In this document: positions 8,904-33,786 of the stretch, one piece after another
Numbering within the stretch: position 1 is the stretch's first letter
How the letters are laid out: each line of letters begins with the position of its first letter
Source: a virus
Direction: 5' to 3' (one strand)
Length of the DNA stretch: 33,916 nt
Virus record (IMG/VR): IMGVR_UViG_3300034105_002352
Span: 1-33,916 of that record
Position numbers and translations under genes: made by a program
The notes under the pieces: generated by a model
Database searches by the model: none
Told to the model about the DNA's origin: nothing
Seen by the model: only the letters and a program-made list of their open reading frames with translations

Positions 8904-9152
8904 TTATACTAGTTGTAGTAAGTTTGTTTCGTGAGTTAATACCTTTTGGTAATCTTCAGTTTTTTCTACAACTTCTAGAATAACGTTATTAAATCTAACT
9001 TCTGCTCCAATATTGGATAAAATTTCCATATTACAATCGTTAGCGGCATCTTCAATCCAAATTTTTGGCTTTTTTTCATCTTCGCCAAACAAAGGCTTCT
9101 CTTTTACGGTCTCTATTCTTAATAAGACTCTGTTAAATAAAGGCTTTCCCAT
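8904..9152 (-). CDS. GroES-like co-chaperonin
   Basis: 82 residues from the ATG at 9152, which overlaps the GroEL stop (TAATG). The start MGKPLFNRVLLRIETVKEKP resembles the GroES opening (PLhDRVlVk), and the end KVLTHETNLLQLV resembles the family's closing strand (..vRESDILAIv). The middle (LFGEDEKKPKIWIED) would be the mobile loop that docks on GroEL but does not match the usual GGI-V/L pattern. It is shorter than host GroES (about 92-97). Position next to a phage GroEL is the main support; gp31-like co-chaperonins of other phages are similarly divergent. Confidence 0.65.
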   Translation of the reverse strand: MGKPLFNRVLLRIETVKEKPLFGEDEKKPKIWIEDAANDCNMEILSNIGAEVRFNNVILEVVEKTEDYQKVLTHETNLLQLV

Positions 9153-10693
9153 TATAATCCTGTATTTGTAATTACACAATCTGTCTGAAGAACAATAGAA
9201 GCTACTGCATTAGCGTTTTCAAGGGCTACTTCAAGCACTTTTGCTGAGTCTATAATGCCTTTATCAAGTAAGTTCTGTATTTTACGTGTTTTAACGTTAA
9301 CTCCTCTACCATACTGCTTTAATTTAGGTTCAAAATCTTCAGTTTTTAGTCCTGCATTAGCTAAAATTTGCTCAAAGGGTTTTCTTACAGCTTGCTTAAC
9401 AAGGTTATAACCTTCTTTTTGACCATTTCTAAGCTTACGTCTCATTTTGTACTTAGAAATGTACAATAATGTAGAGCCTCCACCAGAAACATAGCCCCCC
9501 TCGATTGCCGACTTAACAGCACTAACCGCATCATCTATTCTATCCTTCTTTTCTTTAACTTCAGAAGCGGTAACTCCACCAACAGTGATGATTGCTACAG
9601 CATTTCTCAAGTTTTGTAGTCTTCCTTCCAATTTACTTTTGTCAATCTTATCTTCAGTGTTTTCAATCTGAGATTTAATTAACTCAATTCTTGCTTCAAG
9701 ACGTTCTCCTGGTACTGCTGGAAGAATAACTGTTCTATCCTTTTCACATATAACCTTTTTAGCCATACCCATCTTAATAGTTGTTGGGTACTTAGGGGAA
9801 TAAACTTCTCCACTTGTAAATATAGCTAAATCTTCTAAAATGTTACCTCTGTTTAAACCAAAATCCGGATTCATTGTAACACATAGGTTAAAAGTACCTT
9901 CCAGTTTACCTCGAACTAAGACTGCCATAACAGCTTCGTCTACATCCTCTGCAAAAATCATAATTGCTTTACCTTCAGACTGAGCTTTTCTAATTGGCTC
10001 TGCAATATCTGCTACGGAACCAATTTTACCGTCATAAATCAAAACATAAGCATCTTCTAGTACAGCGGTCATGTTTGATTGGTCTGTAATAAAGTGCGGT
10101 AATGACCAACCTCTGTCAATTGATAATCCCTCAACATAGTTTACGTTGGTATCTCTAGTGGCACCTTCTTGCACATCTACTTTCCCATCAACTCCAATTT
10201 TAGCATACACATCAGCGATTAGTTGACCTAGCTTTTCGTCATTGTTGGCAGATATAGTTGCAATTTGCTTTGTCTCTTCGTAACCGGCATTCTTTTTTAA
10301 TTTCTTTAGTGCATCTCTTACGTCATTTACAGCTATTTCCATACCTTCACGAAGTTCTACGTGAGAAATCTCTTGTTCTAATTTCTCAAAACCTTGGTTT
10401 AATAAATACTGAGCAATAACTGTTGCAGTTGTTGTCCCATCCCCTACTAAGTCTACAGTTTTTCTTGCTGTCTCTTTTATAGCCTTAGCACCTAATTCCT
10501 CAAAGTCATCTTCTAACTCTATAGCCTCAGCAACAGTAACACCATCTTTGGTTACGTGTGGAGCAAAACCCATTTTGTTACGGATTATCGCTAATTTACC
10601 CTCAGCTCCCATAGTTACTTTAACTGCATCGGCTACTATATTAGCACCTATGATTAAAGATTTTTTGGCTTCTACGCCTGTTTTTAGTGTCAT
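9152..10693 (-). CDS. groEL: Phage GroEL-type chaperonin
   Basis: 513 residues against about 545 for bacterial GroEL. VTKDGVTVAEAIELEDDFEELG (48-69, D50 equivalent to E. coli D52), VGDGTTTATV (83-92) and VTASEVKEKKDRIDDAVSAV with GGYVSGGGSTLL near the C-terminus mark the ATP-binding equatorial domain; the apical domain lies between. The nucleotide loop reads TMGAEGK rather than TLGPKG, and the C-terminal GGM repeat tail is absent. It forms ring complexes that fold proteins in the cytoplasm, probably phage structural proteins; pairing with the adjacent GroES-like protein is inferred. The ATG is 1 nt after the stop of the preceding 57-residue gene. Confidence 0.93.
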   Translation of the reverse strand: MTLKTGVEAKKSLIIGANIVADAVKVTMGAEGKLAIIRNKMGFAPHVTKDGVTVAEAIELEDDFEELGAKAIKETARKTVDLVGDGTTTATVIAQYLLNQGFEKLEQEISHVELREGMEIAVNDVRDALKKLKKNAGYEETKQIATISANNDEKLGQLIADVYAKIGVDGKVDVQEGATRDTNVNYVEGLSIDRGWSLPHFITDQSNMTAVLEDAYVLIYDGKIGSVADIAEPIRKAQSEGKAIMIFAEDVDEAVMAVLVRGKLEGTFNLCVTMNPDFGLNRGNILEDLAIFTSGEVYSPKYPTTIKMGMAKKVICEKDRTVILPAVPGERLEARIELIKSQIENTEDKIDKSKLEGRLQNLRNAVAIITVGGVTASEVKEKKDRIDDAVSAVKSAIEGGYVSGGGSTLLYISKYKMRRKLRNGQKEGYNLVKQAVRKPFEQILANAGLKTEDFEPKLKQYGRGVNVKTRKIQNLLDKGIIDSAKVLEVALENANAVASIVLQTDCVITNTGL

Positions 10694-10868: not shown

Positions 10869-11163
10869 ACGCTCTACTAGCTAAATTAAATCTCAGATTT
10901 TCAAAGTCTTCTTTTTGCAAAAGTTGCAAATCTTTGTTAATTCTGTATATTACTCTGTCTGTTCCATTAAAATCATTCTTCATAACTGCGTTAAAAGCAT
11001 CATAAGTCTCCATAACTCCAGTCTTTTTGTTTAATGATTTCTCTTTCGAGAAGGAGAGGTATTGGCATACCCCTCCTAATTGACTTTTTACAGCTTTGAT
11101 ATTGCTTGTAAGGTAAAAAGCAATAATCTGCCAATTAAAGTCTTGTGTATTACTCTTGCTCAT
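10825..11163 (-). CDS. Protein of unknown function, 112 residues
   Basis: Begins MSKSNTQDFNWQIIAFYLTS and contains AVKSQLGGVCQYLSFSKEKS followed by a polar, charged C-terminal half. The C-terminal ~15 residues (YEREPRSTETVPGV) are encoded in the region overlapping the 57-residue gene. The start overlaps the stop of the preceding gene by 14 nt. No family recognised. Confidence 0.7.
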   Translation of the reverse strand: MSKSNTQDFNWQIIAFYLTSNIKAVKSQLGGVCQYLSFSKEKSLNKKTGVMETYDAFNAVMKNDFNGTDRVIYRINKDLQLLQKEDFENLRFNLASRAYEREPRSTETVPGV

Positions 11164-11578
11164 CTGTTTGAGGAACTAGAGTTAATTCACTTGCTTTTTG
11201 TAACTCTTCAATACTTTTAGCAACACCAGTTTCTACATTTCTTTCATGTATTTCCATGATTAACTGTTGTCCCATAATCATATCCGGAGTAAGTTTTGTA
11301 GAGTACTGATACCTAACATTAGCTGGGTTAAATGTAGCATCTCTATCTGTAACCATTGTAACTTTTCCTGATTGTAAATCCTCTTGTGAAGGGTTTTCTA
11401 CAATACTAGAGGTTTCAATATTAACGTATTTTGTTACTTCTGGTAAATAACTTTCTAAGGTAGCATTTATCCCTTGTTCTACAGCAGATTTCATTGCCAT
11501 AAATTCCTTTGAGGTAATTTCAATTTTTTCGTCACCTAAATACCCGTAGTTTAACGGATTTTTTACTTCTTGTTGCAT
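11150..11578 (-). CDS. Protein of unknown function, 142 residues
   Basis: Acidic overall. EKIEITSKEFMAMKSAVEQG and INATLESYLPEVTKYVNIET near the start, and LTPDMIMGQQLIMEIHERNV near the end, look helical with a beta-like centre (KVTMVTDRDATFNPANVRYQ). Its end overlaps the next gene by 14 nt. No family recognised. Confidence 0.7.
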   Translation of the reverse strand: MQQEVKNPLNYGYLGDEKIEITSKEFMAMKSAVEQGINATLESYLPEVTKYVNIETSSIVENPSQEDLQSGKVTMVTDRDATFNPANVRYQYSTKLTPDMIMGQQLIMEIHERNVETGVAKSIEELQKASELTLVPQTDEQE

Positions 11579-11594: not shown

Positions 11595-11801
11595 TTAATT
11601 AATTTGTTCTTTTTTTAAAAATATATAATCATATTTATATTCCATGGGAATTCTATCTATATACTTAACTTTCCAAAACCCAGTACAAAATTCTGAATTA
11701 CAAGGTTTTAAAAGTTGAGAAACATTTACAATACCACTTTTGTATTGTCTAACTTCTATGAAGTTTGTATGTCCTATAGAATTAACATGTGAAATTCTCA
11801 T
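11595..11801 (-). CDS. Small protein of unknown function, 68 residues
   Basis: Basic and aromatic, with two Cys in LLKPCNSEFCTGFWKVKYID. Its ATG overlaps the stop of the putative spanin gene (ATGA), so the two are translationally coupled. No family recognised. Confidence 0.65.
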   Translation of the reverse strand: MRISHVNSIGHTNFIEVRQYKSGIVNVSQLLKPCNSEFCTGFWKVKYIDRIPMEYKYDYIFLKKEQIN

Positions 11802-12301
11802 AGCATTGGAAATTTAAGTATTCCTTTTTTATATCTATAAGCAAGGTATAAAAGTAATAAGATTAACAGCCATAACCACCACAAGTCTAATAAAAACTTA
11901 CTCCAACTAAATTGTTCTTTGCGAATTATTTTTGTATTTTCTACTTTTTTTACTTGAATTTCATTGCTAACAGAATCAATAACTACTTTGTCTACTGTCT
12001 TCTTATTTACAAGTACTGTATTATCTCTCTTTTTTTTCTTGCTTAAACGAGCATTTTTATATTTTGTAACTTTACCATCGTTGTTAACGATTTCAATTGG
12101 TCTAGTAGTGTCAACAGCTTCGATTACTATTTCTTCTGTTTCAACATCAAATTTTATAGCTGTACTATCCTTAACTACACTATCTGTTTTAACAACAGAG
12201 ATAGTTTTTGCAATACTATCGGTTTTCTTTTCCTCTTTGTTTACAGTTTTTGCTCCGCAAGAAATAAGTAAAAACGATAAAAATATAAATATTGTTTTCA
12301 T
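11798..12301 (-). CDS. Lipoprotein with C-terminal membrane anchor: candidate u-spanin
   Basis: 167 residues from the ATG at 12301; a longer frame to 12334 adds residues that spoil the signal peptide. MKTIFIFLSFLLISCGAK carries a lipoprotein signal with lipobox LISC (Cys15). A Lys/Asp/Val-rich, probably extended domain (about 17-133) spans the middle. A hydrophobic helix WSKFLLDLWWLWLLILLLLY (about 133-152) is followed by the basic YRYKKG. An outer-membrane lipid at one end and an inner-membrane helix at the other is the architecture of unimolecular spanins (T1 gp11), which fuse the two membranes at lysis. It lies about 20 kb from the holin and endolysin genes, on the other strand, which is odd. 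A structural envelope lipoprotein is the alternative. Confidence 0.65.
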   Translation of the reverse strand: MKTIFIFLSFLLISCGAKTVNKEEKKTDSIAKTISVVKTDSVVKDSTAIKFDVETEEIVIEAVDTTRPIEIVNNDGKVTKYKNARLSKKKKRDNTVLVNKKTVDKVVIDSVSNEIQVKKVENTKIIRKEQFSWSKFLLDLWWLWLLILLLLYLAYRYKKGILKFPML

Positions 12302-12314
12302 AACTATTTTTAAA

Positions 12315-13052
12315 TTAAAATGGTAAATCATCATCGTCTTCTAAAGCTGGAACTGGAGCACTTTTTTCAGCAGCTGGTAATTCAACTCTAAGACTTTCTA
12401 GTTTAGCTTTTAGTCTAGCGTTTTTTTCTTCTTCTGTTTCTGTATTACTATCCTCTTTTTTCCAAGTTAATCTAGCTTCTTCTCTTTCTAGTAAAGAAAG
12501 TAAGAATTCATCTTTTGCTTCTATTGAAGATGCTGAAGGTTTTTTCTTTCCTAATTTTTCAACCCATACAATAGCTGGGACATCCCCTGGAACAAGCTCA
12601 CCATCTTTATAATAAGAATTAGTGATTTCAGATTTTAGTTTCTCGCCACTAACTTTAATACTAATACCAATTTTTGAGTATTTACTGTCTTCTGGTTTAA
12701 AATTGTATCCTGTAACGGTTACGTTTTGACCTTTCTCTAGTAAAGGTAATAATTTAATCAAACTCTCAGCATAAGTATTGTCTACTTGTTTTGACTGGTC
12801 GTAAATGTCAATTGGAAGATAATAAATTTCATCGCCTTCTTTAACATTCATGGAAATCTGTTGACCAAACTTTCCGTTATAGATAGAAACGGATTCTAAA
12901 ATACCGCTTACTCCATCTTTAAAATACTTTCTGTAACTTACGTTACCTTTTGTCGAGATATGTTTTACATAACCATCTTTTTCTTCCTTTGAGTAATCAA
13001 AGAAAAGACCTGAACCGAACTCTAACTGCAAATAATTTTTACTTAACGCCAT
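12315..13052 (-). CDS. ssb: Single-stranded DNA-binding protein
   Basis: 245 residues. The C-terminus ends ALEDDDDLPF (236-245), the acidic tail with terminal aromatic used by bacterial and phage SSBs to recruit replication partners. The N-terminal two-thirds is beta-rich (ISTKGNVSYRKYFKDGVSGI, LPLLEKGQNVTVTGYNF), compatible with an OB fold, then a charged helical region (REEARLTWKKEDSNTETEEE). It should coat ssDNA during phage replication. Larger than host SSB (about 110-180), and not obviously of the same subfamily. Neighbouring RecA, helicase and PhoH genes fit replication and recombination. Its first 14 nt overlap the preceding gene. Confidence 0.75.
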   Translation of the reverse strand: MALSKNYLQLEFGSGLFFDYSKEEKDGYVKHISTKGNVSYRKYFKDGVSGILESVSIYNGKFGQQISMNVKEGDEIYYLPIDIYDQSKQVDNTYAESLIKLLPLLEKGQNVTVTGYNFKPEDSKYSKIGISIKVSGEKLKSEITNSYYKDGELVPGDVPAIVWVEKLGKKKPSASSIEAKDEFLLSLLEREEARLTWKKEDSNTETEEEKNARLKAKLESLRVELPAAEKSAPVPALEDDDDLPF

Positions 13053-32842: not shown

Positions 32843-33274
32843 ATGAAGACCTACATCGCTTATTTTTTTACTACCCTTCTATTATTTTTCGCTCCAATAC
32901 AAGGACTATTAATATCGGTAGCAACAGCTATTGCATTAGACACAATATTTGGGATAGCAAAAGCAATAAAATTAAAAGATAAAATAACTTCCAGAAAGTT
33001 AAGCAATATAGTTTCAAAGTTTGTATTATATCAAGCAGCAGTATTATTAATATTTACCATAGACACATTTTTATTAGGAGAGTTTTTTAAACTTTGGTTT
33101 TCAATACCATTCTTCTTCACAAAAATTGTAACAATAATATTGATATTTATAGAAACTGTTAGTATAAAAGAAAATTTTGAACAGGCATTTAAAGTAAATG
33201 TTTTTAAACTAATAAAAAACTTCTTAAAAAGGGGAGTAGAAATAAAAGAAGACATAGACATATTAAAAAACTAA
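32843..33274 (+). CDS. Phage holin (4-TM family)
   Basis: 143 residues with four hydrophobic segments (about 4-20, 23-40, 57-77 and 86-106) and a basic, charged C-terminus (FKLIKNFLKRGVEIKEDIDI). ATAIALDTIFGIAKAIKLKD and KITSRKLSNIVSKFVLYQAA (about 27-67) match the conserved D..GI.kA...k..S.kl...l.K pattern of the phage holin family that includes PF05105. It would make lesions in the inner membrane at the end of infection. The endolysin gene follows after 4 nt. Confidence 0.8.
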   Translation: MKTYIAYFFTTLLLFFAPIQGLLISVATAIALDTIFGIAKAIKLKDKITSRKLSNIVSKFVLYQAAVLLIFTIDTFLLGEFFKLWFSIPFFFTKIVTIILIFIETVSIKENFEQAFKVNVFKLIKNFLKRGVEIKEDIDILKN

Positions 33275-33278
33275 AACG

Positions 33279-33707
33279 ATGGTAACAAGTAAGCAATGTT
33301 TTGATAAATGGGGAGACCCATTAACAACACATGATGAAGGAGTTTATATGATTATGTGGGATATACCTACAGAATTAGAAATAGGAATTATCCCTAAAAG
33401 ATTATACTGCAACAAAGCAATGATTGCCCCATTAACAAATGCGTTTAAAAATTTAATTTCTAGAGGATTTGTAAAGGAACTTAAAACTTGGGATGGATGC
33501 TTTAATATTAGAAAAAAAAGAGGGCTATCTTCTCAAAGTCTACATTCGTGGGGAATAGCTATTGATGTAAACGCTTTTGAAAATGGTCTTGGTAAAACTC
33601 CAAAACTATCAGCAGGCTTTGTAAAATGCTTTACGGATGCAGGATTTGATTGGGGTGGAACTTGGACTAGAAAAGACGGAATGCACTTCCAATTAAAAAG
33701 TATATAA
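33279..33707 (+). CDS. Endolysin, peptidase M15 family
   Basis: 142 residues. SLHSWGIAIDVNAFENG (87-103) is the M15 signature SxHxxGxAxDV with H89 and D96, and DGMHFQL (133-139) supplies H136; these are the zinc ligands. AGFDWGGTWTR (121-131) precedes it as usual. M15 peptidases of this kind cut peptidoglycan peptide bridges (D-Ala-D-Ala or L-Ala-D-Glu type). No signal peptide or cell-wall binding domain is visible, so release depends on the holin. Length is typical for phage M15 endolysins. Confidence 0.9.
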   Translation: MVTSKQCFDKWGDPLTTHDEGVYMIMWDIPTELEIGIIPKRLYCNKAMIAPLTNAFKNLISRGFVKELKTWDGCFNIRKKRGLSSQSLHSWGIAIDVNAFENGLGKTPKLSAGFVKCFTDAGFDWGGTWTRKDGMHFQLKSI

Positions 33708-33708
33708 A

Positions 33709-33786
33709 ATGGAAAGAAGACCATTAAAAAATGTATTGTATGTTTTTGGTGTATTTTTTTTAATATATTTATTTAGCTTAATATAA
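33709..33786 (+). CDS. Tiny single-pass membrane peptide, 25 residues
   Basis: Reads MERRPLKNVLYVFGVFFLIY, then LFSLI. A basic start and one hydrophobic helix. It starts 1 nt after the endolysin stop, so it belongs to the lysis operon, and could be a second holin, antiholin or pinholin-like peptide; that is inference. Confidence 0.5.
   Translation: MERRPLKNVLYVFGVFFLIYLFSLI

What the first reader, a model, noticed from the sequence alone, without database searches (positions are those of the whole stretch)
11798..12301. u-spanin-like lipoprotein embedded in the replication operon
Lipobox LISC at one end and a C-terminal transmembrane helix with basic tail at the other is unimolecular spanin architecture. 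Yet it lies in the SSB operon, 20 kb from holin and endolysin and on the opposite strand. Either the lysis genes are split or the protein links the two membranes for another purpose early in infection.
Basis: partly seen in the sequence, partly recalled or inferred. Interest (0 to 1): 0.55.

Follow-up and report, generated by a model that had tools for sequence, protein, structure and literature searches.

The report
Relocated one-piece phage spanin gene
A phage seems to have moved the protein that breaks its host's outer membrane out of its usual place beside the cell-wall-cutting enzyme and into a DNA-replication gene cluster, while the gene that a relative keeps in that place has shrunk to a stub.

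Summary
In detail: window 11798-12301 (-) encodes 167 aa with lipobox LISC, a C-terminal transmembrane helix and a basic tail; no other window ORF of 100 aa or more has both ends. It belongs to an unannotated phage lipoprotein family (PHROG 5885). In 53 of 63 family loci with at least 2 kb upstream, a GH24 or M15 endolysin lies within 3.5 kb upstream on the same strand (control genes 101 of 598); most of the other ten have another wall-enzyme type beside it. So it most likely works as a unimolecular spanin. Its place here is secondary: a 0.7-kb two-gene module, 80% identical in DNA to one directly behind an endolysin elsewhere, begins exactly at the lipoprotein ATG. Eleven relatives of the SSB-like locus lack it. 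Behind the window's own endolysin only a 25-codon stub remains of a 210-aa membrane protein that relative G055 keeps. A sister phage shares the stub and shows no lipoprotein gene in 40 kb downstream. The lysis function is inferred, not tested.

The parts
11798..12301 (-). Lipoprotein with C-terminal TM helix, 167 aa: proposed unimolecular spanin (PHROG 5885 family)
   Evidence: context of relatives
11595..11801 (-). 68-aa companion gene, overlaps the lipoprotein stop by 4 bp; follows the lipoprotein in donor-type cassettes too
   Evidence: function unknown, no PHROG or Pfam hit
11607..12301 (-). Transferred two-gene module: 80.3% DNA identity to L004/L005 over 695 bp, starting exactly at the lipoprotein ATG
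12315..13052 (-). SSB-like gene upstream of the module (acidic DDDDLPF tail); identity not established by profile
11150..11578 (-). 142-aa gene that in relatives follows the SSB-like gene without the module
32843..33274 (+). Holin (Phage_holin_4_1)
   Evidence: E 1.9e-11
33279..33707 (+). Endolysin (Peptidase_M15_4)
   Evidence: E 4.5e-15
33709..33786 (+). 25-codon stub homologous to the start of the 210-aa N-terminally anchored protein that follows the endolysin in relative G055
   Evidence: same stub in sister L015

Best explanation
The protein is a unimolecular spanin. Cys15 is lipidated and sits in the inner leaflet of the outer membrane, the C-terminal helix sits in the inner membrane, and a periplasmic part of about 120 residues crosses the wall. 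It stays inert while the peptidoglycan is intact; once holin and the M15 endolysin (32843-33707) have removed the wall it brings the two membranes together and breaks the outer one. The gene came with its 68-aa companion from a lysis cassette of another phage and landed between the SSB-like gene and the 142-aa gene, while the native membrane-protein gene behind the endolysin was reduced to a stub. Shown here: sequence architecture, context of relatives, sharp module edges, absence of the module from relatives of the locus, the stub. Inferred: export, lipidation, topology, lysis role, direction of transfer, and that the gain made up for the loss. Early expression need do no harm, because spanin action waits for the endolysin (model in PMC6139136).
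For: Both membrane signals in one chain, no cysteine after the lipobox, strands predicted in the periplasmic part. Family conserved: 80 of 90 ORFs read have lipobox and distal TM. 53 of 63 loci have a GH24 or M15 endolysin within 3.5 kb upstream on the same strand against 101 of 598 other genes; CHAP, M15_3 and muramidase genes lie beside it in others. In isolates Flavobacterium phage 11b and FL-1 it directly follows the GH19 gene and 'putative lysin'. Endolysin, lipoprotein and companion gene overlap by 4 bp in L005. dN 0.116, dS 0.98 between window and L005. No lipoprotein gene in 40 kb behind the endolysin of sister G014. Precedents for unlinked spanin genes: T4 (PMC6139136), Campylobacter phages (PMC7692668).
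Against: No functional test of any family member is known to me. The gene is not in the lysis cassette here and its expression time is unknown. The 63 loci include many near relatives, so the count is not of independent events. The window plus G014 covers only part of the genome (relative phi17:2 has 145 kb), so another spanin elsewhere is not excluded. 27 of 88 family members carry a cysteine after the lipobox, which none of 58 listed u-spanins has in the periplasmic part (PMC6139136). The purifying selection was measured mostly on time before the transfer.
Confidence: 0.8

Rival explanations
1. An envelope tether or exclusion factor used early: it bridges the membranes for another purpose, such as blocking superinfection or steadying the envelope during replication, which is why it sits in the SSB-type operon.
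For: Location in a replication-type gene block on the strand opposite the late genes. A lipoprotein exclusion role is known for other phages (recalled).
Against: Nearly all relatives sit beside endolysins; the module edges show that the location is secondary.
Confidence: 0.1
2. A passenger: the module was picked up by recombination, and the phage lyses with an unseen spanin elsewhere or without one.
For: Only one genome with this insertion was found. About 13% of surveyed phages had no recognisable spanin (PMC6139136). The companion gene shows little constraint (dN 0.26, dS 0.33).
Against: The reading frame, lipobox and TM are intact and the lipoprotein shows strong constraint against L005. 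The slot behind the endolysin is emptied in the same lineage.
Confidence: 0.08
3. A chance ORF or a misread hydrophobic stretch.
For: A 120-aa ORF runs antisense over the same place.
Against: 99 related loci in viral contigs, purifying selection, 1 of 10,800 shuffled proteins with both features.
Confidence: 0.01

Closest known systems
Unimolecular spanin, prototype T1 gp11 (PMC6139136, passages read)
   Same: One chain with N-terminal lipobox and C-terminal TM; no periplasmic cysteine; strands predicted in the periplasmic part; relatives lie in lysis cassettes
   Different: No sequence link was tested to the 13 u-spanin families of that survey (the database is not on hand); this gene lies outside the lysis cassette
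PHROG 5885 (unknown function), including Flavobacterium phage 11b PHG11b_49
   Same: Sequence family by profile, same architecture, adjacent to an endolysin in the isolates
   Different: Window member sits behind an SSB-like gene, 20 kb from the endolysin
Unlinked spanin genes: T4 pseT.3/pseT.2 (PMC6139136) and Campylobacter Fletchervirus (PMC7692668)
   Same: Spanin genes away from holin and endolysin
   Different: Those are two-component spanins; here it is a one-gene spanin whose transfer and landing site can be read

Membership tests
Unimolecular spanin | N-terminal lipoprotein signal with lipobox | tested here: met
   LISC at residues 12-15, hydrophobic stretch before it, own rule, no SignalP
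Unimolecular spanin | C-terminal TM domain in the same chain | tested here: met
   Hydrophobic segment 136-154, helix 141-158 in the model (for relatives, 66, 84)
Unimolecular spanin | No periplasmic cysteine (58 of 58 in PMC6139136) | tested here: met
   Window protein has Cys15 only; 27 of 88 relatives have a later cysteine
Unimolecular spanin | Periplasmic domain mainly of strands | tested here: inconclusive
   Four strands at 54-92, the rest disordered, mean pLDDT 59.9
Unimolecular spanin | Gene in the lysis cassette (usual, not universal for spanins) | tested here: not met
   20.5 kb from the holin, opposite strand; met by most relatives. T4 shows that linkage is not required of spanins.
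Unimolecular spanin | Rescues an Rz/Rz1 lysis defect | not testable with these tools
   Needs an experiment
PHROG 5885 | Match to the family profile over most of its length | tested here: met
   E 6.5e-5, profile positions 6-121 of 127; 33 of 38 aligned members match at E 0.01
Two-component spanin (Rz/Rz1 type) | Separate inner-membrane and lipoprotein subunits in neighbouring or overlapping genes | tested here: not met
   Both anchors in one chain; no TM segment in the neighbouring genes 11595-11801 and 12315-13052

The most novel reading that the evidence does not exclude
The gene that was lost marks a third spanin type. M15-endolysin cassettes of related phages carry, instead of a lipoprotein, a protein of about 205 aa with an N-terminal inner-membrane anchor and a C-terminal beta-strand domain that could enter the outer membrane (39 of 69 loci with 1.5 kb on both sides, never together with a u-spanin-like gene). 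A TM-coil protein next to an exported protein with a beta-type end would be a two-gene form of the same idea. The u-spanin gained in the window's lineage would then be a natural replacement of a beta-anchored spanin by a lipid-anchored one, in a different operon.
Probability: 0.3. Interest if true: 0.75.

Novelty: new variant of a known kind. Interest (0 to 1): 0.55.

Why it matters
It gives a likely function to an unannotated phage lipoprotein family found beside several unrelated endolysin types. It also shows a spanin gene moving as a module out of the lysis cassette into a replication-type operon, which fits the idea that spanins need no timing of their own because peptidoglycan holds them back. 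The matching decay of the native gene behind the endolysin points to a so far unnoticed class of candidate outer-membrane disruption proteins and makes that idea testable.

Tried and rejected
Led nowhere: tblastn of the window protein, L097, L109 and L157 against phages gave no match; only L136 (E 0.03) and L164 (E 4e-8, with three weaker rows from 0.6 up) reached isolates. A scan of 84,980 bacterial and archaeal species genomes found 11 pattern hits and no confirmed relative, so no prophage or host is known for the close family. The idea that Cellulophaga phage phi17:2 carries the gene at the same place was wrong: gp095 has no lipobox or TM and the record has no PHROG 5885 match. Fold searches: for the window protein the one match below E 0.001 is another phage lipoprotein of 55% identity; for the beta-tail model nothing reached Foldseek E 0.001 and the best VIA Z was 5.6, a level the tool calls common. 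The promoter-motif scan is not above chance (62 found, 54.7 expected). Rejected: chance ORF, two-component spanin. Unsupported: early tether.

Against my reading, kept: 10 of 63 loci lack a GH24 or M15 model hit within 3.5 kb upstream. Their neighbours are CHAP, M15_3, muramidase, GH19-like or DUF5675 genes, some named by eye only (L003, L157, L166, L167), and L136 has an M15 stretch by tblastn that my gene calling missed. DUF5675 (L145) is not an established wall enzyme. 27 of 69 M15 loci had neither a beta-tail nor a u-spanin-like gene by my rule; by eye L074 among them has a u-spanin-like one. Dropped before counts: L013 (no ORF) and L175 (same contig as L008).

Full report
WHAT WAS CLAIMED AND WHAT IS THERE. 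The ORF 11798-12301 (-) is real and starts at ATG 12301. It encodes 167 aa with lipobox LISC, one cysteine in all, a hydrophobic segment near the C-terminus and a basic tail. No other window ORF of at least 100 aa has a lipobox and a C-terminal TM segment: 1 of 36, against 1 of 10,800 shuffled proteins. Holin and endolysin lie at 32843-33707 (+), Phage_holin_4_1 and Peptidase_M15_4. The upstream 'SSB' is plausible but not established: no PHROG hit and a sub-threshold TIG hit for the window protein, weak SSB PHROG matches in 2 of 11 aligned members, no solved-structure match, and a conserved DDDDLPF tail.

THE PHAGE. The window is the whole of a 33.9-kb virus record. Its capsid protein is 47% identical to that of Cellulophaga phages phi17:2 and phi4:1, and 15 further window ORFs find counterparts at E 0.001 or better in the two phi17:2 stretches searched, among them helicase, RecA, terminase and portal. 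A sister record, G014, has a 98% identical capsid protein and runs 40 kb past the endolysin.

THE FAMILY. The protein matches PHROG 5885 (unknown function) over residues 4-154. A single-protein query found 12 close relatives; an alignment of 11 found 99 loci, of which 80 were kept. Of 91 loci put on my list, one (L013) gave no ORF; of the 90 ORFs, 82 pass the lipobox rule, 88 have a distal TM segment and 80 both. A short motif after the lipid cysteine is conserved; across 38 diverse members C15, K22, D64 and N83 are invariant. The AlphaFold2 model is weak (pLDDT 59.9) but shows four strands at 54-92, disorder on both sides and a terminal helix.

WHERE RELATIVES LIE. Leaving out one duplicate contig (L175), 63 of 89 loci have at least 2 kb upstream. 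Of these, 53 have a GH24 or M15 endolysin within 3.5 kb upstream on the same strand, 15 immediately so; 101 of 598 other genes in the same loci meet the same test. The ten without are L003, L007, L109, L136, L145, L151, L157, L164, L166 and L167. Pfam names a CHAP protein (L007), Peptidase_M15_3 (L109), muramidase (L151), DUF5675 (L145) and a sub-threshold GH19 (L164) near the lipoprotein; L166 has no Pfam hit. L003, L157 and L167 were judged by eye, and L136 has an M15 match by tblastn. Many loci are near relatives, so these are not independent events. Still, the lipoprotein stays while the wall enzyme changes between five Pfam families above gathering score (PF00959, PF13539, PF05257, PF08291, PF11860). 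Two isolates agree: in Flavobacterium phage 11b the homologue PHG11b_49 follows the GH19 gene directly, and in FL-1 it follows 'putative lysin'. The FL-1 frame ends before the TM stretch, which is present in another frame.

THE TRANSPLANT. In L005, the closest relative (78%), the order is coil-type protein, GH24 endolysin, lipoprotein, 70-aa gene, with 4-bp overlaps on both sides of the lipoprotein; the 70-aa gene is 66% identical to window 11595-11801. DNA identity between window and L005 is 80.3% over 695 bp; it begins exactly at the lipoprotein ATG and ends near the end of the companion gene. A search with the SSB-like protein found 14 loci. The printed gene tables show 11 of them (L226-L236) with the 142-aa gene next, in L230-L235 after one gene of 88 to 97 aa, then GroEL; the output was cut in L237 and L238, and L239 ends inside the gene, so these three are not counted. 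With the family profile the window is the only hit among 17 records, which include those of L226-L239, the sister G014 and phi17:2. The junctions match: the SSB-like gene ends in the same words in window and relatives, and the spacer before the 142-aa gene resembles theirs. So a two-gene module entered between two intact genes. I infer the direction from this: cassette to SSB-type operon.

THE EMPTY SLOT. In G055, a 131-kb relative, the endolysin is followed by a 210-aa protein with an N-terminal TM anchor (phrog_25644, unknown function). In the window and in sister G014 the same ORF stops after 25 codons. In the 40 kb behind the endolysin of G014 the only lipobox call in an ORF of 40 aa or more is a 29-aa antisense frame. 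G055 itself has no member of the lipoprotein family. This suggests, from one lineage, that the relocated protein took over from the lost one. The stub is open in both sisters with seven differences in 25 residues, so it may also be a small membrane peptide of its own.

A SIDE RESULT. Relatives of the 210-aa protein lie next to M15 endolysins in 39 of 69 loci with 1.5 kb on both sides; 3 of 69 carry a u-spanin-like lipoprotein, none both, and none of the PHROG 5885 loci has it. By eye L074 is a further u-spanin-like case that my rule missed. The model of the 210-aa protein shows eight strands at 106-202 behind helices (pLDDT 65.4). Other relatives carry a TM-coil protein next to an exported protein with a beta-type end (L018, L019; the exported one also in L250-L252 and L254-L257). 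Whether such ends enter the outer membrane is conjecture.

MECHANISM. In the published model spanins link the two membranes through the peptidoglycan meshwork and act only after the endolysin has removed it; T1 gp11 rescues an Rz/Rz1 defect; T4 spanin genes are not near holin and endolysin (PMC6139136, passages read). Campylobacter phages also have unlinked lysis genes (PMC7692668, passages read). A Crassvirales review says that spanins and lysins are encoded among late genes (PMC10136315, passages read), so the location here is unusual if the SSB-type operon is early, which I could not test.

PRINT. Six searches of the held library listed no paper whose title or abstract start describes this family as a spanin or a spanin gene in an SSB operon. 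PMC8776804 (passages read) names putative u-spanins in the Cellulophaga phages Ingeline and Nekkels; I did not test whether they belong to this family.

VERDICT. Known in kind, unusual in place. The spanin reading is strongly supported by context but not by experiment. Interest 0.55; the beta-anchored spanin idea is the bolder reading (probability 0.3).

Noticed in passing
39 of 69 M15-endolysin loci, e.g. L014 9413-9997, L056 10419-11051: Proteins of about 205 aa with an N-terminal TM anchor and a C-terminal beta-strand domain sit directly beside the endolysin and never together with a u-spanin-like gene; candidate third spanin type. Four of 29 members match phrog_25644, unknown function.
   Followed up: partly
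L018 10384-11173, L019 10426-11176; L250-L252 and L254-L257: Beside the endolysin, an exported protein with a signal-like start and a beta-type C-terminal end; in L018 and L019 next to an N-terminally anchored coil protein. It looks like a two-gene counterpart of the beta-tail proteins.
   Followed up: partly
L061 7146-7595, L074, L078 10417-10929, L087 1977-2480: Other lipoproteins with a C-terminal TM, not matching PHROG 5885, directly beside M15 endolysins: further u-spanin candidates.
   Followed up: partly
window 33709-33786 and L015 7651-7728: The 25-codon stub is open in both sister phages with 7 differences in 25 residues, so it may be a small membrane peptide rather than debris.
   Followed up: no
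G019 (L020, L097) and the 62.7-kb contig of L157 and L189: Two diverged copies of the PHROG 5885 lipoprotein in one phage contig.
   Followed up: no
L136, L172, L241-L245; window 9152-10693: GroEL, often with GroES, lies directly behind endolysin-lipoprotein cassettes in several phages; in the window GroEL lies 1.1 kb behind the transplanted module.
   Followed up: no
L258 3441-3857 (Flavobacterium phage FL-1): The annotated lipoprotein ends before its TM stretch, which is present in another frame: a frame interruption or a sequencing error.
   Followed up: no
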